Part shown: positions 1 to 28,940 of the stretch, one piece after another
Layout: every line of letters starts with the position of its first letter
Numbering within the stretch: the first letter of the stretch is position 1
DNA from: a virus
Length of the DNA stretch: 28,940 nucleotides
Virus record (IMG/VR): IMGVR_UViG_3300042991_001436
Coordinates: 1 to 28,940 of that record
Strand: one strand, 5' to 3'
Notes under the pieces: generated by a model
Databases searched by the model: none
Seen by the model: only the letters and a program-made list of their open reading frames with translations
Told to the model about the DNA's origin: nothing
Position numbers and translations under genes: made by a program

Positions 1-101
1 GGCGGCAACGTCGCGGCAGGGTGTGCAGGGTAAGCCTTGAGGGCGTGAGAGGGAAACGGGAGCCGGATCACGTGACTCGGCGTGGGGAGCAGCACAGGGT
101 C

Positions 102-128
102 CGCAAAGGACGCAAAGAGCGCAAAGCG
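102..128 (+). repeat. Three tandem 9-bp repeats (CGCAAAGxx)
   Basis: CGCAAAGGA, CGCAAAGAG and CGCAAAGCG follow one another without gaps. They lie in the loop of the 74-81/146-153 inverted repeat. Function unknown. Confidence 0.75.
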
Positions 129-310
129 ATTACCACGACCCAGGTGCCGAGTCGGAGATGTGCGAATGCAGGAGCGGGTTTGGCATGTGTACGGCGCCAC
201 AGATGGCCCGCACGACCGATCTGCTCGCGGTGTCGGTTCCACCGCTGCGCGGCACATGGATGTGCAAGTGGCTCTGCACCCCCTTCGGTCGCCGCGAGCG
301 GGCGCTTCCG

Positions 311-358
311 GCATCCTGCCTCCCGCACCACTCGTACATCCTGTACATCGCAGGATGC
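311..358. repeat. Inverted repeat with nested inner hairpin
   Basis: GCATCCTGC (311-319) is the exact reverse complement of GCAGGATGC (350-358). Inside it GTACA (334-338) pairs with TGTAC (342-346). No T-tract follows, so it is not an ordinary terminator. It may be an RNA structural element of the reverse transcriptase leader or a dispersed palindromic repeat. Confidence 0.6.
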
Positions 359-423
359 GCAGGAGCGTCGCGGCTTGAACCGACCTACGATTTCTGCGAG
401 ATCAGTCAAGCGTGCGACAAAGG

Positions 424-1647
424 ATGAGCCGCGCGCGTGCGGTGCGCGTGTCCGGTGAGTATCAGGGTGCAGGAAGGACGCTGTTCCACGAGCTGTATGA
501 CGCCTACGTCGCCGCGCGCCGCGGCAAGAAGCCCAGCATGAACAAACTGGCGTTCGAAACCCGCTGGGCGGACAACCTGCTGGACCTGGAGCGCCGCATC
601 GTCGCGGGTCTGTGGGAACCGTCCCCCTATACGTGCTTCGTGGCGACGCGGCCAAAGGCGCGCGAAATCCACGCTCCTGACTTCTCCGACAGGGTCGTGC
701 ACCACTGGGCGGTGGCGAAGATTGAGCCCGTGTTCGAGCGTGCCTTCATTCATGATTCCTTCGCGAACCGCGCAGGCAAGGGCACCCACGCTGCCGTTCG
801 ACGCGCCAGCCAGTTCATGCGGCAGGTGCATAGCGGCCAGGGCGGGGGATGGTATTTGCAGTTGGACATCGCGAACTTCTTCTACTCCATCCCGCGACGG
901 CGGCTTTGGGAGATACTCAAGCGCGGCATGGTTCGTGGCGGCGTGCCGAAGGAGGTCCAGCACGTGATGCACGCGCTGCTGCGGCGCTCTGCTAACGAGC
1001 ACGGCGTGCGCCACCGCTCAACGCCGGCGCAGCGTGCCTTGGTGCCGCGACACAAGCAATTGGCGAATGCGCGGCCCGGCTACGGCCTGCCGATCGGCAA
1101 CCTGCCCTCACAGTTCGTCGCCAACGTCTACATGAATGAGCTGGACCAGTTCGTGAAGCATCAATTGCGCGCGCACCGCTATATCCGCTATGTCGACGAC
1201 TTCGTGATCTTCCACCACGACCGCGAGCAACTCGTCCAATGGCAGGCTCAGATCGAGCGCTTCCTCGCAGAGAACCTGAAGCTGTCCCTCAAAGCGGACG
1301 TCCGCCTTCGCCGCTTCACTGACGGACTCGACTTCCTCGGCTATGTCATCCGCCCGACGCACACACTGGTGCGCCGTCGCGTAGTCTCCCACGCCCGGCA
1401 GGCTCTAGCCACCTGGGCAGCAGAGCACGTATGCGGCGAGCGCATCCGCGCGACGCCCGACGGCCTCCGCCAACTGAAGTCCGTGTGGGCGAGCTACCAG
1501 GGCCACTTCCGCCACGCCGCCAGCCACCGACTCGCGCGCGGCCTGCACTGTAGGTTCCCGTGGCTGCAGGCAGCGACCGCTCCTCGCCGGTTCGACTGCC
1601 GAGTCGAGCACCAGGAATTTACCCTGCAATTTCGGGGTGCACACTGA
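424..1647 (+). CDS. Reverse transcriptase, DGR-type
   Basis: RNA-directed DNA polymerase of 407 aa. Visible motifs: an N-terminal LFHELYDAYVAARRGKK segment typical of DGR/group II-like enzymes; motif A QLDIANFF (catalytic D148); motif 4 GLPIGNLPSQF (residues 221-231); and catalytic YVDD (D258, D259). The IGNLxSQ form of motif 4, in place of the QGxxxSP of group II introns and retrons, is the signature of diversity-generating retroelement enzymes. There is no maturase or endonuclease domain, so this is not an intron enzyme. ATG 424 keeps the full N-terminal region; a GTG at 412 is an in-frame alternative, and neither has a strong ribosome-binding site. The stop overlaps the next start (TGATG), placing it in the operon of the Mor-like activator. 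No accessory Avd gene, template repeat or variable repeat is visible here; they may lie upstream of the window. A DGR-related reverse transcriptase with another role, such as defence, remains possible. Confidence 0.9.
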   Translation: MSRARAVRVSGEYQGAGRTLFHELYDAYVAARRGKKPSMNKLAFETRWADNLLDLERRIVAGLWEPSPYTCFVATRPKAREIHAPDFSDRVVHHWAVAKIEPVFERAFIHDSFANRAGKGTHAAVRRASQFMRQVHSGQGGGWYLQLDIANFFYSIPRRRLWEILKRGMVRGGVPKEVQHVMHALLRRSANEHGVRHRSTPAQRALVPRHKQLANARPGYGLPIGNLPSQFVANVYMNELDQFVKHQLRAHRYIRYVDDFVIFHHDREQLVQWQAQIERFLAENLKLSLKADVRLRRFTDGLDFLGYVIRPTHTLVRRRVVSHARQALATWAAEHVCGERIRATPDGLRQLKSVWASYQGHFRHAASHRLARGLHCRFPWLQAATAPRRFDCRVEHQEFTLQFRGAH

Positions 1648-2237
1648 TGCAAGTCTGCTGCCCCGTGTGCTCAGCGGAGTTTCCCATCGAAGCCGGGTTG
1701 GTTGAGGGCGACGCCAAGCGCTTGGCGGCCGTGCTGGCCGACTTGGAGCCAGTCGTTGCCCGCGCGCTGATTGGCTATTTACGGCTGTTCAAGCCTCCGA
1801 AAACCGCCCTTCGCGTAGCGCGCGCGGTGAAGCTGGCGCGCGAGGTCGTTGATCTGATCGACGCTGGCGAAGTCAGTCGCGACGAGCGCACCGGCATGCG
1901 GCGCAGCGCTGCGCCGGCAATGTGGGCAGCCGGCATGGAGCAGATGGCTCAGAAGCGCGAGAGCCTGACGCTTCCGCTCGACGGTCACAACTACCTGCGC
2001 GTGGTGGTGTTCGCCCTGGCCGAGCAGCAGGCTGCGCGTGCCGAAGCGCGCGCCGAGGAAGCCAAGCGTACTGGCCAGCATCGGCGCACGGCGCCAGGTG
2101 GTCACACAGAGGCCGAGACCGCGCGCGATCGCGAGATTGCGTTCGTGCGGCAGATACATAGCTACGGCCAGATCGACGACGCCGAGCGCGACCGACAGCT
2201 CGCAACGATTGCGTCCAAATACCAGGGGGGCACATGA
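1647..2237 (+). CDS. Conserved Mu-like phage protein with N-terminal Cys cluster
   Basis: A 196-aa soluble protein starting MQVCCPVCSAEF, with Cys at 4, 5 and 8, which looks like half of a zinc-ribbon knuckle; no second CxxC pair is present. The middle is helical and charged, and the C-terminal third (about 125-190) is Ala/Glu/Arg rich and probably coiled or disordered. Proteins with this type of N-terminus occur just before Mor in other Mu-like phages of high-GC hosts, but I know of no function. The start ATG overlaps the reverse transcriptase stop by one base and the end overlaps the Mor-like start by four bases, so translation is coupled on both sides. A role in middle-phase regulation is only a guess from position. 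Confidence 0.75.
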   Translation: MQVCCPVCSAEFPIEAGLVEGDAKRLAAVLADLEPVVARALIGYLRLFKPPKTALRVARAVKLAREVVDLIDAGEVSRDERTGMRRSAAPAMWAAGMEQMAQKRESLTLPLDGHNYLRVVVFALAEQQAARAEARAEEAKRTGQHRRTAPGGHTEAETARDREIAFVRQIHSYGQIDDAERDRQLATIASKYQGGT

Positions 2238-2677
2238 GCCAGCAGCGGGACTTGATCGGGCTGCCAGACGATGCAGACGAGCGCCAGGCGCTGGCAGATC
2301 GCGTTGGCGACGATGGCGCGGTGGACGATACCGATACCAAGTGGGCGCCGTTTCTTGCCGAGCTGTTGCAGGTCCTCGAAGCGCGGTACGCCCGGCGTGG
2401 GATGTGCGCACGCGACGCTTTCGACCTCGCGCGCGATAGCGTGCTCGAAATTGCACAGCACTTGGGCGGGCGGGTAAGGTACATCCCGCGCGGGGACCGC
2501 ATCCGCACATCCCTGCGCGATGCCGAAATCTATCGGCGCTGCAACGGGCGGAACCATGATGCGTTGGCGACGGAGTTTGGCATTACGGCAATCCACGTCT
2601 ATCGTATCTGCCGTCAACAATACAAGCTGCACTTGGGTCGGATGCAGGGTCGTCTCGCTTTCAACGAGGATCAATGA
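2234..2677 (+). CDS. Mor/C-family transcription activator
   Basis: A 147-aa protein of the Mor transcription activator family (Mu Mor and C), DNA-binding dimers that activate middle or late phage promoters. The C-terminal helix-turn-helix is visible at about residues 107-129 (NHDALATEFGITAIHVYRIC) and is followed by a basic tail. The acidic N-terminal half would be the dimerisation domain. It lies just before the late region, as C does in Mu, and the lysis and head blocks downstream are each preceded by an identical palindrome (3071-3082 and 12083-12094). I infer that this protein recognises that site. Only one Mor/C-type gene is visible, so it may do the work of both Mor and C, or act alongside an upstream Mor. 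It starts with an ATGA overlap with the preceding gene and ends with an ATGA overlap with the next. Confidence 0.92.
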   Translation: MSQQRDLIGLPDDADERQALADRVGDDGAVDDTDTKWAPFLAELLQVLEARYARRGMCARDAFDLARDSVLEIAQHLGGRVRYIPRGDRIRTSLRDAEIYRRCNGRNHDALATEFGITAIHVYRICRQQYKLHLGRMQGRLAFNEDQ

Positions 2678-3021
2678 TGAACACAGTGGGAGTCATGAAG
2701 GCGGTTGTTGCTGCGGGTCTGGTTGTTGCGGCATCCGGGTGCGACACCCACGGTGCCGCCGAGGAAGCGGTACGCGCGCAGTTGAAGGACGGCGACTCCG
2801 CGAAGTTCCGCAATCTATACGTGAAGACGCAATTTTCTGGTCAGTACGTAGGCACGAAATTCGTCAACGACGTAGCGACGTGCGGCGAGGTCAACGCCAA
2901 GAACGGCTACGGTGCGTACACGGGATTCAGGCGGTTCTACGTGCTCGGCTCAAGCGTCACCATCCCCGATGATGGCGATGACATTGGGATGAGATCGCTG
3001 AAGCTCCATTGCGACGGGTGA
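2674..3021 (+). CDS. Small predicted lipoprotein
   Basis: A 115-aa protein with a hydrophobic signal (MKAVVAAGLVVAASGC, lipidated Cys at residue 23 from the first ATG). The mature part contains a motif around ATCGEVNAKNGYGAYTGF seen in small secreted or lipoproteins of unknown function in proteobacteria. The first ATG (2674) overlaps the Mor stop and has GAGGA about 5 nt upstream; ATG 2695 would give a neater signal peptide. It is the last gene of the operon, directly followed by a terminator. Membrane lipoproteins at such positions in temperate phages can act in superinfection exclusion or as lysogenic-conversion morons. No direct evidence for either is visible here. Confidence 0.75.
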   Translation: MMNTVGVMKAVVAAGLVVAASGCDTHGAAEEAVRAQLKDGDSAKFRNLYVKTQFSGQYVGTKFVNDVATCGEVNAKNGYGAYTGFRRFYVLGSSVTIPDDGDDIGMRSLKLHCDG

Positions 3022-3042
3022 CGCCATCAACTCGAACCCGAC

Positions 3043-3069
3043 AAGCCCCGCCCCGCGCGGGGCTTTTCT
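3043..3069 (+). terminator. Intrinsic terminator after the activator/lipoprotein operon
   Basis: A perfect 9-bp stem (AAGCCCCGC 3043-3051, GCGGGGCTT 3057-3065) with a 5-nt loop, running into TTTTCTTT. It separates the middle operon from the late region and abuts the proposed late operator, with which its T-tract overlaps. Confidence 0.9.
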
Positions 3070-3087
3070 TTAGCGCGCGCTACACCC
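3066..3087 (+). promoter_or_regulatory. Proposed late-promoter operator, copy 1 (lysis/packaging)
   Basis: A 22-bp sequence identical to 12078-12099, built around the perfect 12-bp palindrome TAGCGCGCGCTA (3071-3082), flanked by TTCTT and CACCC. It stands between a terminator and the holin gene, where Mu has its C-dependent lys promoter. The dyad suits a dimeric Mor/C activator. I could not define a convincing -10 hexamer at the same distance from both copies, so the exact start of transcription is open. Confidence 0.72.
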
Positions 3088-3200
3088 TGCCGATGCGTCC
3101 ACTGAGCGAGCCTACACGCGCGGGTTCGTGAGCTGTCCCCGCCGCCCGGCGGCACTTCCCCTGAGTGTGCGCCGGGCGTTCCTATCTGCCGGAGGACGCC

Positions 3201-3497
3201 GTGGACATCCGCACTCGATTCGTAGCGCTGTATCAGCGCGCAACCGCGCAGCCTGTCATTGCGCTCGCTTGGGCCACGTTCGCCGTTGTCGCGGTTCTCA
3301 ACCCCGCCAAGGTCGGCGTACTGGTCTACGGCGTATGCAAGTTGGCGCTTTTCGCGCACGCCGGTAACTGGGTCGACTGCCGTCGATTCCCCGACGATCA
3401 GCCGGAGAAGTTGACCGGCATCGAACAGGGAACGGCTTGGAAGCGCAAAGCGTGGATCATCTGCGCCGCGATCCTCGCCGGAGCGCTCGCGCCGTGA
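3201..3497 (+). CDS. Predicted holin
   Basis: A 98-aa membrane protein with hydrophobic segments at about residues 17-36, 38-54 and 83-98. It resembles the small putative holins of Mu-like phages, which place an aromatic/charged loop (here GNWVDCRRFPDDQP) between the second and last segments. Holins form inner-membrane lesions that release the endolysin and set lysis timing. GTG 3201 is chosen because GGAGGA (3191-3196) sits at ideal spacing; a longer frame upstream has no such signal. It is the first gene after the proposed late promoter and overlaps the endolysin gene (TGATG). Confidence 0.75.
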   Translation: MDIRTRFVALYQRATAQPVIALAWATFAVVAVLNPAKVGVLVYGVCKLALFAHAGNWVDCRRFPDDQPEKLTGIEQGTAWKRKAWIICAAILAGALAP

Positions 3498-4195
3498 TGC
3501 GCCGGGCCTACGATCTGCCGCGATGCGCGCTGCGTTGCATCCGCTACTACGTCACGATCGGCGCCGTGGTGTTCGCTGTGCTTGTGCTGAGCGGGATGCT
3601 TGCATCCGTCGACGCCGCCGAGCTGCGCATCCCGGAGGCCAGCGCGCGCTACCGCATCGCAGTCAACCGCGCGGCCGGCGATGCGTTCGGGCTCGATGCC
3701 AGCCCCGCACGCCTCGCCGCGCAAATACATCAAGAGTCCGGATGGCGGCCCGATGCGCAGAGCGCCTATGCGGTCGGGCTGGCGCAATTCACGCCGGCCA
3801 CCGCCAAATGGCTGCCGAACGTGTGCCCTCAGCTCGGCGCATTTGATCCGTGGGACGCCGGGCAGGCCGTGCGTGGCGCCGCATGCTACGACGCCTGGCT
3901 ACATGCGCAGAACCGCGCGATGGGCGTCGGCGCGACGATCAGCCCCTGCGCGCGTTGGACGTTCACCTTGCGCGCCTACAACGGCGGCCAGGGCTGGATC
4001 AACCGCGAGCGCCGCGCCACCGCCGCTGCAGGCGACGATCCCAACAACTGGGCCGACGTGGAGCGCCACAGGTTGCGCGCCGCATGGGCGCACCGCGAAA
4101 ACACAGACTACCCGCGCCGCATCCTGATGCGTCTCGAACATGGCTACGTCAGCGCAGGCTGGTCGGGTGAGCCCGTGTGCGAGGCGCTGCGATGA
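3497..4195 (+). CDS. Endolysin, SLT-type lytic transglycosylase
   Basis: A 232-aa peptidoglycan-cleaving enzyme of the soluble lytic transglycosylase fold. A hydrophobic N-terminal segment (about residues 19-36) followed by an Ala-rich cleavage-like site (SVDAAEL) indicates export or a signal-arrest-release mode of activation. The catalytic Glu is E80 in the context QIHQESGW, followed by the characteristic AVGLAQFTPATAKWL block and, later, LRAYNGGQGW. The ATG overlaps the holin stop by one base; a longer upstream frame lacks a start signal. It is followed by an ATGA overlap with the next gene. With the holin and the Rz/Rz1 pair it completes the lysis cassette. Confidence 0.9.
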   Translation: MRRAYDLPRCALRCIRYYVTIGAVVFAVLVLSGMLASVDAAELRIPEASARYRIAVNRAAGDAFGLDASPARLAAQIHQESGWRPDAQSAYAVGLAQFTPATAKWLPNVCPQLGAFDPWDAGQAVRGAACYDAWLHAQNRAMGVGATISPCARWTFTLRAYNGGQGWINRERRATAAAGDDPNNWADVERHRLRAAWAHRENTDYPRRILMRLEHGYVSAGWSGEPVCEALR

Positions 4196-6855: not shown

Positions 6856-8426
6856 CCGACTTGCTCGCACGCGAACTGCCGGCGGCGATTGCGCGGGAGA
6901 TCCATACCGACACCGGTGCGGTGCTGCTGCCGTACCAGCGCGCCTGGATTGCCGACGACAGCGACCTCAAGGTGGCTGAGAAGAGCCGCCGCATCGGCCT
7001 GACGTGGGCCGAGGCCTCGGACGACGTGCTGATTGCCGCGCGGTCGCGCCAAGCCGGTGGCATGAACGTCTACTACATCGGTTACAACATGGACATGGCT
7101 ATCGAGTACGTCGAGGCCTGCGCGATGTGGGCGCGTGTCTTCAACGAGGCGGCTGGCGAGATCGAGGAAGGCGAGGAAGTTTTCAAGGACGGCGACGACG
7201 AGAAGCACATCAAGACCTATACCATCCGCTTTGCCTCTGGCTTTCGGATCGTGGCGCTCAGCAGCAGGCCGGCGAACCTTCGCGGCAAACAGGGCGTCGT
7301 CGTATTCGATGAAGCAGCGTTCCACGGCGCGCTCGATGAGCTGCTCAAAGCGGCGCTCGCGTTGCTGATCTGGGGCGGCAAGGTCAGGGTGATCTCTACC
7401 CACGACGGCGATCAGAACCCCTTCAACGAGCTGGTGACCGAGATTCGCGCTGGCAAGCGCAAGGGCAGCGTCCACCGGATCACCTTCCGCGACGCCGTCG
7501 AGCATGGCCTGTTCGGTCGCGTGTGCATGCGCAAGGGTGTGCCCTGGGATGAGGAGGCGCAGGCCAAGTGGGTGGCCGATGTGTACGCCTTCTACGGCGA
7601 CGCCGCCGAAGAAGAGCTGGACGTGGTTCCGAGCCAAGGGTCTGGTGCCTGGCTGACCACGGCATTGATCGAGGCGCGCATGATCGATGCGCCGGTGCTG
7701 CGCTATACCTGTCCGCAGGGCTTCGAACGCCTGCCGGACGAGGAGCGCTTCCGGATCATCCAGGAATGGCTGGACGCGGAAGTGGCGCCGCTGTTGGCGG
7801 CGCTCGATCCCAATCTCAACAGCTATTTCGGTCAGGACTTCGGTCGCAGCGGCGATCTCACCGTGATGGTGCCCGCGCAGGTCGAGCAAGCATTGCGCCG
7901 CCGCGTGCCGTTCGTGCTCGAGCTGCGCAACATGCCGCACCGGCAGCAGGAGCAGATCGCCAAGTTCGTCATTGGCCGCCTCCCGCGATTCCAGAAGGCG
8001 GCCGTAGACGCACGCGGCAACGGCCACGCGGTATCGGAGTTCCTCGCGCAGGATTTCGGATACGAGCGCGTGGAGCTGGTGATGCTGACCGAGGGTTGGT
8101 ATCGCGAGCAGATGCCGCCGCTCAAAGCGGCGTTCGAGGACGACACCATCGCGTTGCCGCGCGACAAGGACATTCTCGTTGACCTGCGCGCGATCAAGGT
8201 CGTCAAGGGCGTTGCGCGCGTCCCGGAAAAGAAGACGGCCGGCAAGGACGGTGGACAGCGCCACGGCGACGCCGGCGTAGCGCTGGCGCTGATGCACTAC
8301 GCGAGCCGTCAGGACGTCGAGGAGATCGACTACTACCGGGTCAGACTCAATGCCGCCGGGCGCGAGGACTATGAGCGCGCGCTGTCGCTCGGCGCCGGCT
8401 GGCGCACTCGTGAGGGCATCTGGTAA
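6852..8426 (+). CDS. Large terminase subunit (Mu gp28-like)
   Basis: A 524-aa packaging ATPase/nuclease. The ATPase has a Walker-A-like segment VAEKSRRIGLTW (residues 41-52, the deviant K-S-R-x-I-G form of phage terminases) and Walker B VVVFDEAAF with D153/E154. The nuclease part begins at YFGQDFGRSGDLTVMV (D329), and further acidic residues (VDARGNG, then GDAGVALALMHYA) complete an RNase H-like site. It drives headful packaging of phage plus flanking host DNA in Mu-like phages. The GTG start lies at the stop of gp27 and the stop overlaps the portal ATG (TAATG). Confidence 0.95.
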   Translation: MTDLLARELPAAIAREIHTDTGAVLLPYQRAWIADDSDLKVAEKSRRIGLTWAEASDDVLIAARSRQAGGMNVYYIGYNMDMAIEYVEACAMWARVFNEAAGEIEEGEEVFKDGDDEKHIKTYTIRFASGFRIVALSSRPANLRGKQGVVVFDEAAFHGALDELLKAALALLIWGGKVRVISTHDGDQNPFNELVTEIRAGKRKGSVHRITFRDAVEHGLFGRVCMRKGVPWDEEAQAKWVADVYAFYGDAAEEELDVVPSQGSGAWLTTALIEARMIDAPVLRYTCPQGFERLPDEERFRIIQEWLDAEVAPLLAALDPNLNSYFGQDFGRSGDLTVMVPAQVEQALRRRVPFVLELRNMPHRQQEQIAKFVIGRLPRFQKAAVDARGNGHAVSEFLAQDFGYERVELVMLTEGWYREQMPPLKAAFEDDTIALPRDKDILVDLRAIKVVKGVARVPEKKTAGKDGGQRHGDAGVALALMHYASRQDVEEIDYYRVRLNAAGREDYERALSLGAGWRTREGIW

Positions 8427-9979
8427 TGGCTACTGTGGCGTCGCGCATTCTTGGACCTGACGGCAACCCGATCCAGATCGCTGTGCTGGATGAGGAGATC
8501 GCTGCAGGCGGCATTACCGGCATCCGCCAGGTGTGGCGGAACAGCGTGGCCGACAACCTGACTCCGGCTCGCCTCGCCAGCATTCTGTCCGCTGCCGCAG
8601 AGGGGAGCGCGAGCGACTACTTGACCCTGGCGGAGGAGATGGAGGAGCGCGACCCGCACTATGCGTCCGTGCTCGGCACCCGCAAATTGGCGCTCGCAGG
8701 GCTTGACCCGCGTGTCGATTCGCTCAGCGACGATGCCAAGGATGTAGAGATCGCGGATGCGGTACGTGAGCTGGCCGCAGCGCCGTGGTTTGGCGACGCG
8801 GTGTTCGACTTGGCCGACGGGCTTGGCAAGGGCTACTCGGTCTGTGAAATCGTGTGGGACCGCAGCACTAAGCCGTGGCGGCCGGTGCGGCTGCCGTGGC
8901 GCGATCAGCGGTTCTTCGAGTTCGATCGCGAGACGGGCCAGGATCTTCGGTTGCTGGACGATGCCGATCCGGTGCACGGCATTGCGCTGCCGCCGTACAA
9001 GTTCATCGTGCATCGGCCCAGGATTCGCTCGGGCTTGCCAATACGCGGCGGGCTCGCGCGCCTGGTCGCCGTCGCCTACATGTGCAAGGCGTGGAGCTGG
9101 AAGGACTGGATGGCCTTCGCGGACATCTTCGGGCTGCCGCTGCGCGTGGGCCGCTACGGCCCGAACGCCACCAAGGATGACATCGCCAAGTTGATGTCGG
9201 CGGTCGCCAACCTTGGCTCCGACGCGGCGGCGGTGATGCCCGAGAGCACCCGGGTCGAGTTCCAGGCGGCGCCGAACACGGCCGGCGCGGCCGAGTTCTT
9301 CGAGAAGCTGGCCAACTGGTGGGACAAGCAGGTCAGCAAGGCGGTGCTGGGCCAGACCATGACCGCCGACGACGGCTCATCGATGAGCCAGGCCAAGGTG
9401 CACAACGAAGTGCGCCTCGATCTGCTCAAAGCGGATGCCCGTGCGTTGCAGAACACGCTCAACCGCGACTTGGTGCGTCCGTTTGTGGACCTCAACTTCG
9501 GGCCGGGGAGCTATCCGACGCTGGTCTTGCCCGTTCCGGAGCCCGAGGACGTCCGGCTGCTGGTGGACGCGCTGGAAAAGCTGGTGCCGATGGGCCTTGA
9601 AGTCGAGCAATCGGTAATCCGCGACAAGCTCAATCTGCCGGACCCGGCCACCGGAAAGGGCGTCAAGTTGCTGCGTGCCGCTGGCGCGGCCGCGCCGGCA
9701 CTGAACCGAGCGCAGAACCGCGAAACCCAGCCCATCGTCGGCCGCGAGGCCCAACTCGTCGATCTGCTGGCGCGCCGCGCCGATCCGATCATCGCGGGCT
9801 GGATCGACCAGATCGAGGCGCTGGTGCGGAGCGCCGAGTCGCTGGAGGAGATTCGCGACGGGCTGCTCGCGCTGCTGCCCAATCTGGACACGGAGCAGTT
9901 CGGCCAGGTGATGCAGCAGGCGCTTGCGATTGCTGGTGTGGCCGGCATGAGCGACGCCCGCGACGACGCCGATGCCTGA
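8426..9979 (+). CDS. Portal protein (Mu gp29-like, DUF935)
   Basis: A 517-aa subunit of the dodecameric portal ring through which DNA enters and leaves the head. Family hallmarks of DUF935 are visible: LAEEMEERDPHYASVLGTRK near residue 70, GYSVCEIVW near 135, PLRVGRYGPNATKDD near 240, and KAVLGQTMTADDGSSMSQA near 305. The C-terminal 100 residues are helical and acidic. Expected length for the family is about 500 aa. It overlaps gp30 by 8 nt. Confidence 0.95.
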   Translation: MATVASRILGPDGNPIQIAVLDEEIAAGGITGIRQVWRNSVADNLTPARLASILSAAAEGSASDYLTLAEEMEERDPHYASVLGTRKLALAGLDPRVDSLSDDAKDVEIADAVRELAAAPWFGDAVFDLADGLGKGYSVCEIVWDRSTKPWRPVRLPWRDQRFFEFDRETGQDLRLLDDADPVHGIALPPYKFIVHRPRIRSGLPIRGGLARLVAVAYMCKAWSWKDWMAFADIFGLPLRVGRYGPNATKDDIAKLMSAVANLGSDAAAVMPESTRVEFQAAPNTAGAAEFFEKLANWWDKQVSKAVLGQTMTADDGSSMSQAKVHNEVRLDLLKADARALQNTLNRDLVRPFVDLNFGPGSYPTLVLPVPEPEDVRLLVDALEKLVPMGLEVEQSVIRDKLNLPDPATGKGVKLLRAAGAAAPALNRAQNRETQPIVGREAQLVDLLARRADPIIAGWIDQIEALVRSAESLEEIRDGLLALLPNLDTEQFGQVMQQALAIAGVAGMSDARDDADA

Positions 9980-20200: not shown

Positions 20201-22884
20201 AAAAAGCGCTGTTCGGCGGCAAGAAAAAGCGCACGCTCACATCGGCACTGGATGAGGACGCGCAACAGGCAATCGACGATCTGTTCGCACAGCTCACCCA
20301 GTCGCTGGCGGAGGCGGCGAAAACGCTGGGTGTTGAGGTTCCGACATTGATCAGTGGCAGCTTCCGCCAGGAGTTCGACAAAAAGGGCAACCTCGGGAAA
20401 GAGTTCAGCACCATCGCCGGCCGTGTCTACAACGAGTCCCAGCAGGCGTTCGCGCAGCGGTTGCAGGCGGAAAACATCGTCGCGCTGGTCGATTCCGCGC
20501 TGAACCTAGACGAGCTGGGAAGTGCGCAGGACGAGGCCTCGCAAATCGCCGAACGCTGGCGCGGCAGTGCTGAGCGGTTGCTGGCCGGTGCGCAATTCCT
20601 GCTGCTGGCCACCACTGACCTGCGCAACGGCTTCAACCTGTTGGGCACCGGCACGCTGACCGGCATCACCGCCCTGATAGAAGACCTCGCCAAGGCCGGC
20701 GAGCCGCTGGCGCAGGCATATGCGCGTGTGTCGGTGAGCACGCAATTGCTGGAACAGGCGCTGGACCTGTCGGGCGTGACGCTGACAAAAACGCGCGATG
20801 AGTTCGTGCGCTTCGCTGTCGATATCGCCGACGCGGCCGGCGGGCTGGATCGCGCCCAGGCGCTATGGTCGGACTACTTCACACGGTTCTTCAGCGAAAC
20901 CGAACGCGCACAACTCGCGCTCAATGATGCGTTGGCCAACGCGGCGACCCAGTTCACCGACATCAATCTCGATGCCACCGCCTTCACCGGCGACGGCGGC
21001 GCCGAGGCTTTCCGCGCCCTGTTCGAGCAGGCGCTGCCGACGCTGAGCGCCGAGGCCGTGGTGGAATGGCTGGAGGCCGCCAATGCGCTGGGCCTGGTAC
21101 TCGACGCCACCAGCGCGCTCAACGACTCGCTCGATGCTACCGCGACCGCCGCCGATGAAGCCGCCGCGCTGGCTGAGCAGCTGGCCGGATTCATGGACAG
21201 CATCACCGATCAAGCCCGCGACGCTGCCGACGCACTGGCAGATTTCGGGCTGTCAGACCTGGCCGTTGGCTTAGCGCAGGTGGCGCGCGAGACCGGCCGA
21301 GCTATCGATGCAGCGACGGCTCTGGGTGCCACCGAGTCCGATTTCGCTGAAATACGCGATCTCGGCGCCGCACGTGCTGAGCTGATTCAGCGGCAGGCGC
21401 TGGCCAATCTGGCTATTCTGTTGGACGGCGTTTCGCAATCGCTGTTCGATCTGGATGTATCGCCGCTTGAGATCGAGCTTGCCCGCATTCAGCGCGCAAT
21501 GAGCGACACACTCGCTCAGGCGAGCGCGCTGGGCGCGACCGAAGCCGAGCTGGCGCGCATTCGCGAGCTGGGCGCGCGGCAGGCGGAGCAGGCGGCGGCT
21601 GCGCAGCGCGCCCAGCTCACGGACCTGCTCGGCGGTGTGTCGCAGTCGCTGTTCGAGCTGGATGCGTCGCCGCTTGAGATCGAACTCGCTCGCATCCAGA
21701 CCGCGATGCAAGCCACGCTGGATCAGGCGAGCGCGCTGGGCGCGACCGAAGCCGAGCTGGCGCGCATTCGCGAGCTGGGCGCGCGTCAATCTGCCGCCGT
21801 GATCGAGACCGAAGTGCAGCGACTGCGCGATGCGTTTGTCCAGCTCGCGCAATCGATCGGTCAGACCCGGCAGAGCATCGCAGACGACATCCTCAGTATT
21901 CGCCGCCCGCAGCTTGGGTTCAGCGAGTCCGGTTTCCAGTCAGGTCGTATCGACGACCTGCGCATTCAGCTCGACGGCGCGGTCGATCCGCAAGAGCGCA
22001 TTGGCCTGATCGATCAGATCAGGCAGGCCACCTTGGCGCGCTTCAACGCCGAGCTGGCTGCGATCCAACAGACGGATCAGGCACAACAGCAAGCGTCACA
22101 GGCTGCCCAGCAGGCGATCGCTGCGCAGCGTGAGGCGCTGTTGCGGCTGCGCGATTTTGCCGACGGTCTCGGGCTGTCCAGCAACTCGCCGCTGACGGCA
22201 TCTCAACGGTTGGATGTCGCACGCTCGCAATTCGACAACCTGTTGGGGCGCGCGCGCGGCGGCGACACGGATGCGATCGGCAGTTTGCAGCAGGCTGCCG
22301 ATGCGTTGCTGTCGGAAAATCGCACCGTTTTTGGTGTGTCGCAGATTGCAGTCGACGAGTTCAATCGCGTTCAGCAGGAGCTGCGGTCGATCGCTGGCCA
22401 AGGTGTGCGCGGTGTCGCATCGTTCAACGATCCGTTTCAGCGCGCGAGCATCGATACCGCAAGCCGCATCGCACAGTTGCAGGCCGATGCGATCGGTGAA
22501 TTGCAGTCGCTCGACGATACGCTCGCCGCGCTGCGTCTCACGCAAGAAGCGCAGACCGAGGGCAGCGTCGATGCGCTACGTGCGCGCTTTGACCAGGCCG
22601 AAGTGCACAAGGATGAGATCGTCGCTCACATCCTTCCAATCGTCGATGCAATAAGCCAGAGCAAGGCGACCGGTGATCAGCAGCTCGCGGAGGCGCGTCG
22701 ACAGACCGAGGCGCTGCAAGCGGTACTCATCGGTATCGATGGCCAGCAGACTGCGACCGGCGCGTTCCTGGACAAGTTTCTCGTCTGGATGGGCCAGCAA
22801 AAGGACCAGGTGGATCAGCAGCAGGCCGAGATCGAGCGCATGGCGCGCGCGATCGAGACGGCGGTAAAGGCGGTGCGCGCATGA
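17260..22884 (+). CDS. Tail tape measure protein
   Basis: A 1874-aa protein that sets tail length. The N-terminal ~230 residues match the phage tape-measure N-terminal domain (QVLGFFGIAAGAAAIRTVTR, ADEYTNLQSRIRLVT, LARSTADLGLSQSQLAQI, GALRGDEFNSVAEQAPILLD). Hydrophobic Gly/Ala-rich segments lie at about 270-380 and 840-950, suited to membrane insertion during DNA ejection. Long helical, Gln/Ala-rich stretches make up most of the rest. About residues 1325-1510 hold three tandem repeats of 65-69 aa, two of them nearly identical. At about 1.5 angstrom per residue the tail should be about 280 nm (inference). GGAG at 17246-17249 serves the ATG. The stop overlaps the next start (ATGA). Confidence 0.95.
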   Translation: MSDQTVTLRIRTDAGGTVTAVQGVVAEVDKIGGAAQRAGREAGAGFAQTRTSASTATEVVRNLRQQVLGFFGIAAGAAAIRTVTRLADEYTNLQSRIRLVTDSQAQANAVSAQVFNIAQQTRSELSATGQLYTTLARSTADLGLSQSQLAQITQTANQSFVVSGASADSVRAAIVQLSQGLASGALRGDEFNSVAEQAPILLDLVAESLGKSRGELREFAAQGGITAKILTDALLSGAVNVQRQFDGMQITIAGAGQQVESAAAKFVGGAGQASGASLALASAISLLAGNFDAVATVSVAIGAIYGIRLVAQLGASALAWASNGLQVLAYNASLLRLGATSPLVAGALRGVTVSAVGLSAALGPIALGLTALAVAITAVRSSANSDPLRKQIESLDELNQKLREQARLQRLIDSSRATSASVQSVSDIDQAQRRVDDLNARLERITAGPRSRGTESAIAAIRREIDAATRSTEQYARKLGENAALSGSFDKLPPTMKALAEGTRDAARQLATWVGLGREAAKLPLKPTSDEFNKSLSKQLDTLRGQNIEIKKGVRARIEFEAITDAGVESVDQLSQASRDLIDAVVRETEENKKLKASRKDATSESTKAKEALRAAKEAAAAWREESAAAAADLAGPQAQAVAAYEKQIREMADLVSKGAISVDEFNAAANVQEQVLNRATIAAQAQLSPIDQMLADLRFEATLIGLSNTEREVEIALRQAALSLQQQGIDKDSAEGKSKLALVAASARQNAEQTRLADTAQQAAEEYQSAWRNATDSVSRAFGDRVTGGIDLFKNFGKALKDILRQTLSDLIAMIVRSNVTRMLAGLTPVAANAGTPGANVTGAVTGAVGSGGSLLGGITQGGGLVGNLLGSTFGTLGGTLAGLGGALGGFGAGLTVAGNAGLLAAGQFGVASLAAGNLAVGFGALIPVVGAIVGAAVLVNSLTGGGLFGTKFKTVSSGIDFTIGDSGASGFEFQNQTKKKALFGGKKKRTLTSALDEDAQQAIDDLFAQLTQSLAEAAKTLGVEVPTLISGSFRQEFDKKGNLGKEFSTIAGRVYNESQQAFAQRLQAENIVALVDSALNLDELGSAQDEASQIAERWRGSAERLLAGAQFLLLATTDLRNGFNLLGTGTLTGITALIEDLAKAGEPLAQAYARVSVSTQLLEQALDLSGVTLTKTRDEFVRFAVDIADAAGGLDRAQALWSDYFTRFFSETERAQLALNDALANAATQFTDINLDATAFTGDGGAEAFRALFEQALPTLSAEAVVEWLEAANALGLVLDATSALNDSLDATATAADEAAALAEQLAGFMDSITDQARDAADALADFGLSDLAVGLAQVARETGRAIDAATALGATESDFAEIRDLGAARAELIQRQALANLAILLDGVSQSLFDLDVSPLEIELARIQRAMSDTLAQASALGATEAELARIRELGARQAEQAAAAQRAQLTDLLGGVSQSLFELDASPLEIELARIQTAMQATLDQASALGATEAELARIRELGARQSAAVIETEVQRLRDAFVQLAQSIGQTRQSIADDILSIRRPQLGFSESGFQSGRIDDLRIQLDGAVDPQERIGLIDQIRQATLARFNAELAAIQQTDQAQQQASQAAQQAIAAQREALLRLRDFADGLGLSSNSPLTASQRLDVARSQFDNLLGRARGGDTDAIGSLQQAADALLSENRTVFGVSQIAVDEFNRVQQELRSIAGQGVRGVASFNDPFQRASIDTASRIAQLQADAIGELQSLDDTLAALRLTQEAQTEGSVDALRARFDQAEVHKDEIVAHILPIVDAISQSKATGDQQLAEARRQTEALQAVLIGIDGQQTATGAFLDKFLVWMGQQKDQVDQQQAEIERMARAIETAVKAVRA
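21516..21785 (+). repeat. Direct repeat in the tape measure gene (63 bp exact, 207-bp period)
   Basis: 21516-21578 and 21723-21785 are identical over 63 bp, at a distance of exactly 207 bp (69 codons). The flanking parts of the unit (SQSLFxLDxSPLEIELARIQ) are also alike. A more diverged third unit (LGATESDFAEIRDLGAARAE) precedes them. The identity at wobble positions points to recent duplication or gene conversion; whole-unit gain or loss would keep the frame and change tail length by 69 residues. Confidence 0.9.
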
Positions 22885-26537: not shown

Positions 26538-27130
26538 TGGCTGGTGCGTTGACTCTATGGGGGTTTGGCAAGGGCGCTGCGGTTCCTGGCGCTCCGACCA
26601 TTGGCACCGCCACGCCTGGCAACCTGTCGGCGACAGTGACGTTCACCCCACCGGGAGACAATGGCGGTAGCCCGATCACGAGTTATCAGGTGCGCGACTT
26701 TTTTAACACGCTGTGGGGCAGCGGCGCCGGTTCGCCTGTTGTCGTTACTGGCCTCGTGCGCGGTGTTTCGTATCAGTTCAAGGTGCGAGCCGTCAATGCT
26801 GTTGGCGGGGGGCTGGACTCTGCGTTCAGCAACGGCTTTGTTGCATTCACAGTGCCAGGCGCTCCGACGATCGGGACGCTCACAAAGACTGGAGCCGGCG
26901 CTGCCAGCGTGACGTTCACCCCACCAGCGGACGATGGCGGTAGCTCGATCACGAGCTATTCGGTCGAGTTCGGAGACCATCTGGGCAACAGCGTCACCGC
27001 GACCGGAGCGGGCTCGCCGATTGCGACGAGTGCGCTGGTTGTTGGCCGCACGTACTGGGCCAAAGTCAGAGCGATCAATGCTGCAGGCTTTGGTGCGATT
27101 TCCGCACAGTCCAACACAATCGTTGCTTAG
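26537..27130 (+). CDS. Protein with two fibronectin type III domains
   Basis: A 197-aa protein formed almost wholly of two Fn3 domains, residues about 17-107 and 108-197. Each begins VPGAPTIGT, has SVTFTPPxDxGGSxITSY, a VVGRTYWAKVRAINAAG-type strand (VRGVSYQFKVRAVNAVG in the first), and ends SxFSNG/SAQSNTI. The two copies are related at DNA level with a 273-bp period. Fn3 domains are common on phage tails and mediate weak binding to cell-surface sugars. It could be attached to the virion as a decoration or bind the fibre. Confidence 0.88.
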   Translation: MAGALTLWGFGKGAAVPGAPTIGTATPGNLSATVTFTPPGDNGGSPITSYQVRDFFNTLWGSGAGSPVVVTGLVRGVSYQFKVRAVNAVGGGLDSAFSNGFVAFTVPGAPTIGTLTKTGAGAASVTFTPPADDGGSSITSYSVEFGDHLGNSVTATGAGSPIATSALVVGRTYWAKVRAINAAGFGAISAQSNTIVA

Positions 27131-27641: not shown

Positions 27642-28409
27642 GTGGTCAAACCGATTGTTTCTTGGCCTGGCGGAAAGCGCCGACTGGCCCCGAAGCTGCT
27701 TCCGCTCTTTCCCAACCACACATGTTACGTCGAGCCGTTTGCTGGCGGCGCTGGGCTGTTCTTCCTGCGTCCTGAGCCCGCGAAGGTTGAGGTGCTCAAC
27801 GACATCAACGGGGAGCTGGTGAACCTCTACCGTGTGGTTCAGCACCACCTGGACGAATTCGTCCGGCAGTTTCGTTGGGCGCTGTACAGTCGCCAGTCGT
27901 TTCTCTGGGCCAAATCGCAGCGGCCCGAGACCCTGACCGATATCCAGCGTGCTGCGCGCTTTTTCTACGTCCAGAAGGCTGCCTTTGGGGCGAAGGTGGT
28001 AGGCCAGACCTTCGGCGCAGGCCCTAGCGCACCCCGCTTGAACCTGACAAGGCTCGAAGAGGACCTGAGCGCAGCCCACTTGCGCTTGGCCGGCGCTGTG
28101 ATCGAGCACCTGCCGTGGCAGGACTGCATAGCGCGCTATGATCGCGCCGGCACCTTCTTCTTCCTTGACCCCCCCTACTGGCAGGTGGAAGGTTACGGTG
28201 TCGAGTTCGACCTGTCTCAGTACCAGTCGCTGGCCAGTACTATGCGCACGCTCAAGGGCAAAGCCCTACTGACCGTCAACGATCATCCCGACGTGCGCGC
28301 GGCCTTTGCCGGCCTTCGGTCTGTGCGTGTCACGACCCGGTACACCATCGGCACCAGCGCGGCCAGCCGCGCCGCCGTCCGTGGCGAGCTGGTCTTCCGC
28401 AACTGGTGA
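27642..28409 (+). CDS. DNA adenine N6-methyltransferase (Dam/D12 class)
   Basis: A 255-aa S-adenosylmethionine-dependent methylase. Visible are the D12-class N-terminus VSWPGGKRRLAPKLLPLF (residues 6-23), the SAM-binding EPFAGGAGLFFL (31-42), and the catalytic DPPYW (D176). It lacks a restriction partner and so is a solitary phage methylase. It probably protects phage DNA from restriction or changes gene regulation. GTG 27642 has AGGAGA about 7 nt upstream. It is set apart from the tail genes by a 148-bp gap, at the far right end of the phage, as is Mu's DNA-modifying gene mom, suggesting functional replacement. Confidence 0.92.
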   Translation: MVKPIVSWPGGKRRLAPKLLPLFPNHTCYVEPFAGGAGLFFLRPEPAKVEVLNDINGELVNLYRVVQHHLDEFVRQFRWALYSRQSFLWAKSQRPETLTDIQRAARFFYVQKAAFGAKVVGQTFGAGPSAPRLNLTRLEEDLSAAHLRLAGAVIEHLPWQDCIARYDRAGTFFFLDPPYWQVEGYGVEFDLSQYQSLASTMRTLKGKALLTVNDHPDVRAAFAGLRSVRVTTRYTIGTSAASRAAVRGELVFRNW

Positions 28410-28454: not shown

Positions 28455-28491
28455 CAAACCAAGTGGCGCGTGTTTACAAACCAAGTGGCGC
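28455..28491. repeat. Two direct repeats, probable transposase-binding sites of the right end
   Basis: CAAACCAAGTGGCGC occurs exactly at 28455-28469 and 28477-28491, a 22-bp period equal to the 22-bp spacing of MuA sites R1 and R2. They lie just inside the proposed phage terminus. Confidence 0.75.
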
Positions 28492-28502
28492 CTTACACCC
28501 CC
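28492..28502. other. Prophage right end (attR junction)
   Basis: The sequence CTTACA ends at 28497; read inward from the right it starts TGTAAG, as ends of Mu-like phages start with TG. The five host bases that follow (CCCCC, 28498-28502) would be the target-site duplication if the phage makes 5-bp duplications like Mu. The left end must be sequenced to prove it. Confidence 0.65.
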
Positions 28503-28530
28503 CTTGAAACCCCCCACCCCCGCCCCATCT
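28503..28530 (+). promoter_or_regulatory. Sigma-32 heat-shock promoter of groES
   Basis: CTTGAAA (28503-28509), 13-bp spacer, CCCCATCT (28523-28530): close to the RpoH consensus CTTGAA ... CCCCATnT. The start of transcription would be near 28537. Confidence 0.88.
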
Positions 28531-28551
28531 TGCTGGGGCCGCCGGGATGCT

Positions 28552-28579
28552 TTCTCACGGGCGCTTGGCGCGCTATCAT
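28552..28579 (+). promoter_or_regulatory. Possible housekeeping promoter of groES
   Basis: TTCTCA (28552-28557), 16-bp spacer and TATCAT (28574-28579). It would start transcription within the CIRCE element, which suits HrcA repression. The -35 is weak. Confidence 0.5.
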
Positions 28580-28605
28580 TGGCACTCATGCGGGGGGAGT
28601 GCTAA
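28579..28605. promoter_or_regulatory. CIRCE operator (HrcA-binding inverted repeat)
   Basis: TTGGCACTC (28579-28587), 9-bp spacer, GAGTGCTAA (28597-28605). Only one base differs from the consensus TTAGCACTC-N9-GAGTGCTAA. HrcA repressor binding here would control groES(L). Confidence 0.93.
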
Positions 28606-28652
28606 CAAGCCCCTCGTTTGTTCACGAAAAACAACCGTTTAAGAGGACTCAC

Positions 28653-28940
28653 ATGAGCATCAAGCCGCTGTACGATCGCGTTGTCATCAAGCGCATGGAA
28701 GAAGAAAAAGTCTCCGCCGGTGGCATCGTCATCCCCGATTCGGCCACCGAAAAGCCGCTCAAGGGCGAAGTCGTCGCCGTCGGCGAGGGCAAGGCCCTGG
28801 ACAACGGCACGCTGCGCGCGCCCAAGGTGAAGAAGGGCGACAAGGTGCTGTTCGGCAAGTACGCCGGCACCGAGGTCAAGCTCAACGGCGTCGACCTGCT
28901 GGTGGTCAAGGAAGACGACATCTTCGCCATCCTTGGCTGA
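28653..28940 (+). CDS. groES: Co-chaperonin GroES
   Basis: A 95-aa full-length GroES (Cpn10), lid of the GroEL folding chamber. Recognisable are [18 protein letters not shown], the mobile loop [17 protein letters not shown] (about residues 19-35), [27 protein letters not shown] and the C-terminal [15 protein letters not shown] lies about 6 nt before the ATG. The promoter region has both an RpoH site and CIRCE, so it is induced by heat through sigma-32 and relieved from HrcA. groEL should follow just after the window. This is host chromosome, not phage. Confidence 0.98.

What the first reader, a model, noticed from the sequence alone, without database searches (positions are those of the whole stretch)
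424..3021. DGR-type reverse transcriptase inside the Mor-activator operon of a transposable phage, with no diversified target among the late genes
The enzyme has the IGNLxSQ and YVDD signatures of diversity-generating retroelements. In most phage DGRs the target is a tail protein gene directly next to the reverse transcriptase. Here the full late region is in view up to the right end and no lectin-fold or FGE-like target, Avd or template repeat is seen. Its stop codon overlaps the operon that encodes the late activator, so it would be made during the middle phase or from the early transcript. Either the target is in the left early region (a non-structural or surface protein, or a lysogenic-conversion gene), or the enzyme diversifies a host gene, or it has a different job such as defence. 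Each option would be unusual.
Basis: partly seen in the sequence, partly recalled or inferred. Interest (0 to 1): 0.8.

Follow-up and report, generated by a model that had tools for sequence, protein, structure and literature searches.

The report
Truncated prophage with orphaned DGR enzyme
The reverse transcriptase is the surviving last gene of an ordinary diversity-generating cassette; its target, helper gene and template appear to be missing only because the left part of this integrated phage is absent from the record and bacterial DNA is joined on there.

Summary
The gene at 424-1647 is a diversity-generating retroelement (DGR) reverse transcriptase: all 33 loci found with an RT 55-65% identical are complete DGRs (Lcl_C target with VR, Avd, TR, RT; 239 adenine versus 3 other mismatches in the best TR/VR pairs of 18 of them). 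It sits in the Mor operon of a transposable phage, its stop overlapping the next start. The missing target is not a property of a working element. In the relatives the TR lies directly before, usually into, the RT start, and the nearest VR about 640 nt further left. In the window only the TR's last ~40 bases remain (about 428-471). Left of it, at least through base 390, is dispersed intergenic repeat DNA of Lysobacteraceae chromosomes. The right end is host too (groES), just past the phage right end at 28497. A complete 36,170-bp sister prophage shows that ~8.4 kb of left end and early region (repressor, MuA, MuB, Gam, GemA) is missing here. Best reading: a prophage whose left part was deleted from host DNA into the TR, leaving an intact but orphaned RT. 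An assembly misjoin at the same spot cannot be excluded. No exotic target or defence role is needed. Interest is low.

The parts
1..390 (.). Host-like DNA: dispersed intergenic repeats of Lysobacteraceae chromosomes (pieces at 85-126, 247-302, 291-390)
   Evidence: 44 of 297 family genomes match in short dispersed pieces; 10 copies of a 21-mer in one genome against 0 for the reversed control; alignments run to base 390
391..427 (.). Junction zone between host-like DNA and the DGR remnant; exact breakpoint unknown
   Evidence: No match to host repeats or to relatives' TR
428..471 (+). 3' remnant of the template repeat (TR), overlapping the RT start; AAC-rich TR body missing
   Evidence: 450-471 identical to the TR end of L003; aligned with TR ends of the close relatives; maximum 2 AAY codons per 25 in 1-484 against 6-11 in relatives
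424..1647 (+). DGR-type reverse transcriptase, 407 aa, intact reading frame (start codon uncertain: ATG 424 or GTG 412)
1647..2237 (+). phrog_2161 gene of the Mor operon; start overlaps RT stop (TGATG)
   Evidence: sister phages have different genes in front, several with the same TGATG overlap
2234..2677 (+). Mor-family late transcription activator
   Evidence: PF08765, 7e-23; 94% identical in the G080 sister prophage
2674..3021 (+). Small protein of unknown function (phrog_2320), overlapping Mor
28455..28491 (+). Two direct copies of CAAACCAAGTGGCGC at the phage right end (probable transposase-binding sites)
   Evidence: two variant copies at the same place in the G080 prophage; function inferred
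28497..28497 (.). Phage right end (...CGCCTTACA)
   Evidence: Homology to the G080 prophage breaks here; G080 has CCCAA duplicated at both of its ends
28501..28940 (+). Host chromosome: groES promoter region and groES (28653-28940)
   Evidence: 84-88% DNA identity to groES loci of Lysobacteraceae; phrog co-chaperonin GroES

Best explanation
This is a left-truncated transposable prophage of a Lysobacteraceae bacterium, sitting upstream of groES. The intact phage carried an ordinary DGR cassette (Lcl_C target with VR, Avd, TR, RT) in the cargo slot just before the phrog_2161-Mor operon. A deletion running from host DNA through the phage left end, repressor, MuA, MuB, Gam, any GemA, target, Avd and most of the TR stopped about 40 bases before the TR's 3' end. 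It left a full-length RT reading frame with no template and nothing to diversify. Before that it worked as standard mutagenic retrohoming: TR RNA copied by RT with Avd, errors at adenines, cDNA replacing the VR. Shown: RT lineage, TR stub, missing parts, host DNA on both sides, phage right end, intact sister. Inferred: the deletion, its timing after DGR acquisition, and the former mechanism.
For: All 33 RT relatives at 55-65% identity are complete DGRs with Avd 0.6-0.7 kb before the RT and TR at its start. TR 3' stub present at the expected place. Host repeats up to base 390. groES at the right end. Complete sister prophage G080:C87:141-36310 with 5-bp duplication CCCAA; its left ~8.4 kb holds repressor-like HTH protein, MuA, MuB, Gam, GemA and matches nothing in the window left of the phrog_2161 gene. 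RT departs at only 1 of 82 positions invariant in its relatives, as expected if loss is recent.
Against: The left flank does not match the dsbD-groES neighbourhood of the nearest host genomes, so host DNA must also be lost or rearranged, or the join is artificial. No second record of the junction exists in viral contigs. No intact phage of this group with a DGR in this slot was found.
Confidence: 0.68

Rival explanations
1. Assembly misjoin: the real phage has a complete DGR and early region, but the assembler broke at the repeated, hypervariable TR/VR and joined the RT side to a piece of host intergenic repeat.
For: TR and VR are near-identical ~110-nt repeats in relatives, a known cause of assembly breaks; the left flank is itself repetitive host DNA and does not fit the groES neighbourhood of related hosts.
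Against: A misjoin needs shared sequence at the joint; none is evident in 391-427. Both flanks point to the same host clade.
Confidence: 0.19
2. Insertion: host repeat DNA inserted into the TR, and the rest of the DGR and the phage early region continue left of base 1.
For: The record starts inside host-like DNA, so what lies further left is unseen.
Against: At least 390 bases made of different dispersed repeats look like an intergenic stretch rather than one mobile unit.
Confidence: 0.06
3. Fusion with a resident DGR: the RT belonged to a host or other-prophage DGR and a deletion joined it to the phage's Mor operon.
For: None of the close RT relatives has this phage's genes in the fetched flanks, apart from one weak match 5 kb from the L185 RT; those typed lie near genes of other temperate phages.
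Against: The joint would fall exactly between a natural RT stop and the next start, and the same TGATG overlap occurs in sister phages with other genes in the slot; a second event would be needed for the TR truncation.
Confidence: 0.03
4. Exaptation: the phage keeps a stand-alone DGR-type RT, without template, Avd or target, for another job such as defence.
For: Intact reading frame and conserved invariant positions; operon position.
Against: TR stub abutting host DNA and loss of the whole early region show truncation. No specific defence-RT family is matched above its cut-off.
Confidence: 0.04

Closest known systems
DGRs of Lysobacteraceae and their temperate phages with DUF1566/Lcl_C targets (L115-L132, L044 here; the Stenotrophomonas sp. 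SKA14 DGR described in PMC6642488)
   Same: RT 55-65% identical (for the loci fetched here); identical TR 3' flank; RT start overlapping the TR end
   Different: They have target(s), Avd and full TR, and no Mor operon behind the RT; the window has only the RT and the TR tail. The SKA14 RT itself was not compared.
Hankyphage of Bacteroides (PMC6199706, PMC12135933) and Bacillus phage BalMu-1 (hit H17)
   Same: Transposable phages encoding a DGR-type RT
   Different: Hankyphage has a complete DGR that diversifies its tail fibre; the RT here lies before the Mor operon and its cassette is truncated. BalMu-1's DGR parts were not examined.
Sister prophage G080:C87:141-36310
   Same: Mor 94% and most late genes 70-96% identical; same right end sequence
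   Different: Complete left end and early region; GemA in front of phrog_2161; no RT match in that genome

Membership tests
Diversity-generating retroelement | RT of the DGR lineage | tested here: met
   All 33 loci with RTs at 55-65% identity are complete DGRs; BPP-1 bRT matched at 29% identity, 3e-33
Diversity-generating retroelement | Template repeat next to the RT | tested here: not met
   Only the 3' ~40 bases remain, about 428-471
Diversity-generating retroelement | Target gene with variable repeat differing at template adenines | tested here: not met
   No pair and no Lcl_C target in the window; the place where relatives have it lies outside the record
Diversity-generating retroelement | Avd accessory protein | tested here: not met
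   Profile of 33 relatives' Avd finds nothing in six frames
Diversity-generating retroelement | Adenine-specific mutagenic retrohoming activity | not testable with these tools
   Needs reads or an experiment
Transposable (Mu-like) phage | Mor/C-type activator followed by Mu-like late genes | tested here: met
Transposable (Mu-like) phage | MuA/MuB transposition genes and left end | tested here: not met
   Absent from the record; present in the sister prophage
Transposable (Mu-like) phage | 5-bp target-site duplication | tested here: inconclusive
   Right end clear at 28497, left end missing; sister has CCCAA at both ends
Defence reverse transcriptases (DRT/UG, Abi, retron) | Match to a specific family model above its cut-off | tested here: not met
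   Drt, AbiA and retron models far below cut-off in NCBIfam; in PADLOC (no cut-offs given) the best hit is a generic RT model and UG/DRT models score lower

The most novel reading that the evidence does not exclude
The phage has kept a DGR reverse transcriptase without template, Avd or target as a stand-alone middle-operon gene with a new function, and the left border seen here is how the element naturally ends.
Probability: 0.04. Interest if true: 0.65.

Novelty: new member of a known kind. Interest (0 to 1): 0.2.

Why it matters
It removes a candidate for 'DGR without a target' and shows a general pitfall: in this DGR lineage the template runs into the RT start and the target lies just upstream, so a record or prophage that ends there looks targetless. 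The relatives raise a better question: why temperate phages of Lysobacteraceae diversify small Lcl_C proteins encoded near lysogeny and replication genes rather than tail fibres.

Tried and rejected
Adenine-specific repeat pairs within the window: only the tape-measure tandem repeat at 21418-21788, whose differences are mostly not at adenines. VR sharing the TR stub: only the stub itself is found. Rfam on 1-3500: nothing above a gathering score. Group II intron maturase: TIGR04416 scores 105 against a cut-off of 300, and no intron RNA was found. Exact scans of viral contigs for the left flank next to the junction and for the RT 5' end: none. Left flank in plasmids: none. Empty-site comparison at groES: the right flank matches related hosts, the left flank does not. 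Test for relaxed constraint on the RT: no excess of departures at invariant positions (1 of 82), although its tree branch is long (0.69). A structure prediction was not run because close relatives already settle the family.

Full report
What was checked. The window is a 28,940-base virus record with no host genome attached. The ORF at 424-1647 encodes a 407-aa reverse transcriptase. It matches the PHROG reverse transcriptase family at 1e-98, and BPP-1 bRT at 29% identity. Its TGA overlaps the ATG of the next gene, which overlaps a Mor-family activator.

What its relatives look like. Viral and cellular collections gave 33 loci with an RT at 55-65% identity, 29 after near-copies are removed. Every one is a complete DGR. 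An Avd-like gene lies 0.6-0.7 kb before the RT in all (phrog_3206 'Avd protein of DGR'), and 29 of the 33 match the two Lcl_C target queries upstream (Lcl_C domain). All 33 have a TR/VR pair with mostly adenine differences (15 loci; 18 loci, whose best pairs sum to 239 adenine and 3 other mismatches). In most of them the TR runs into the RT start, and the nearest VR starts about 610-660 nt upstream of the TR start. With only 423 bases before the RT, a normal VR of this family would lie outside the window.

What is in the window instead. The TR's 3' flank is in place: 450-471 is identical to the TR end of L003, and the similarity to relatives extends left to about 428. The AAC-rich body is absent: at most 2 AAY codons per 25 in bases 1-484, against 6-11 in the relatives. 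Profiles built from 33 Avd and 50 target sequences find nothing in six frames of the window. No adenine-tolerant repeat of the first 520 bases exists elsewhere in it.

Where the left DNA comes from. Bases 1-440 match 44 of 297 genomes of the family in short dispersed pieces, at 85-126, 247-302 and 291-390. A 21-base stretch recurs 10 times in one genome, against 0 for the reversed control. I read this as host intergenic repeat DNA; I did not annotate the genes around each copy.

Where the right DNA comes from. Bases 28501-28940 are host: groES and its upstream region, 84-88% identical to four genomes that are also four of the five best matches to the left repeats. The phage right end is at 28497, next to two direct copies of CAAACCAAGTGGCGC. 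It was fixed by comparison with a complete sister prophage, G080:C87:141-36310, 36,170 bp, with CCCAA at both borders.

What is missing. In the ~8.4 kb before the same operon the sister has its left end, an HTH repressor-like gene, MuA, MuB, Gam and GemA, and its genome has no RT match. None of that sequence is in the window. The prophage in this record is therefore truncated on the left, and the truncation ends inside the TR.

How it most likely arose. In sister phages the gene before phrog_2161 varies, and several share the TGATG overlap, so the position behaves like a cargo slot. The parsimonious course is that a DGR cassette occupied the slot and that a later deletion ran from host DNA into the TR. 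The RT departs at 1 of 82 positions invariant in its relatives, so it was under selection until recently. The order of events and the deletion itself are inference. A misjoin in assembly at the same point would look much the same and is the main rival, because TR/VR repeats break assemblies and the left flank does not match the dsbD-groES neighbourhood of the nearest hosts (dsbD named from my reading of the sequence).

Comparison with what is known. Transposable phages with complete, active DGRs are known (Hankyphage: PMC6199706, PMC12135933), and DUF1566 is described as the most common Pfam domain of DGR targets, with an example in Stenotrophomonas (PMC6642488). The window element is a truncated member of that kind. 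It meets the RT criterion for a DGR and fails TR, VR and Avd because of the truncation, so it should be filed as a DGR remnant, not as a working DGR and not as a new RT system.

What remains of interest. Three relatives examined lie near genes of other temperate phages: CII-like activators, primase, RecE-like exonuclease, integrase. Their one to three targets are small Lcl_C proteins without a signal peptide that I could see by eye. What those phages diversify is a real but separate question.

Noticed in passing
L043, L044, L183 (close RT relatives): Complete DGRs with small Lcl_C targets lie near CII-like activators, primase, exonuclease or integrase genes of temperate phages, not near tail genes.
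   Followed up: partly
G080:C87:141-36310 (L178, L182): Complete 36,170-bp sister prophage with a 5-bp duplication CCCAA at its ends; defines both termini of this phage group.
   Followed up: yes
window 27642-28409: DNA methyltransferase (phrog_56) as the last phage gene before the right end, 96% identical in the sister.
   Followed up: no
window 28579-28606: CIRCE-like inverted repeat (GCACTC...GAGTGC) upstream of host groES, recognised by eye.
   Followed up: no
window 21418-21788: Two 164-nt direct repeat copies (85% identical) inside the tape-measure gene.
   Followed up: no
window 26636-26964: Repeat of 56 nt (86% identical) in a minor tail protein gene, probably two similar domains.
   Followed up: no
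window 8426-9979: Portal protein only 38% identical to the sister while the following gene is 94% identical, a sign of mosaic exchange in the head module.
   Followed up: no
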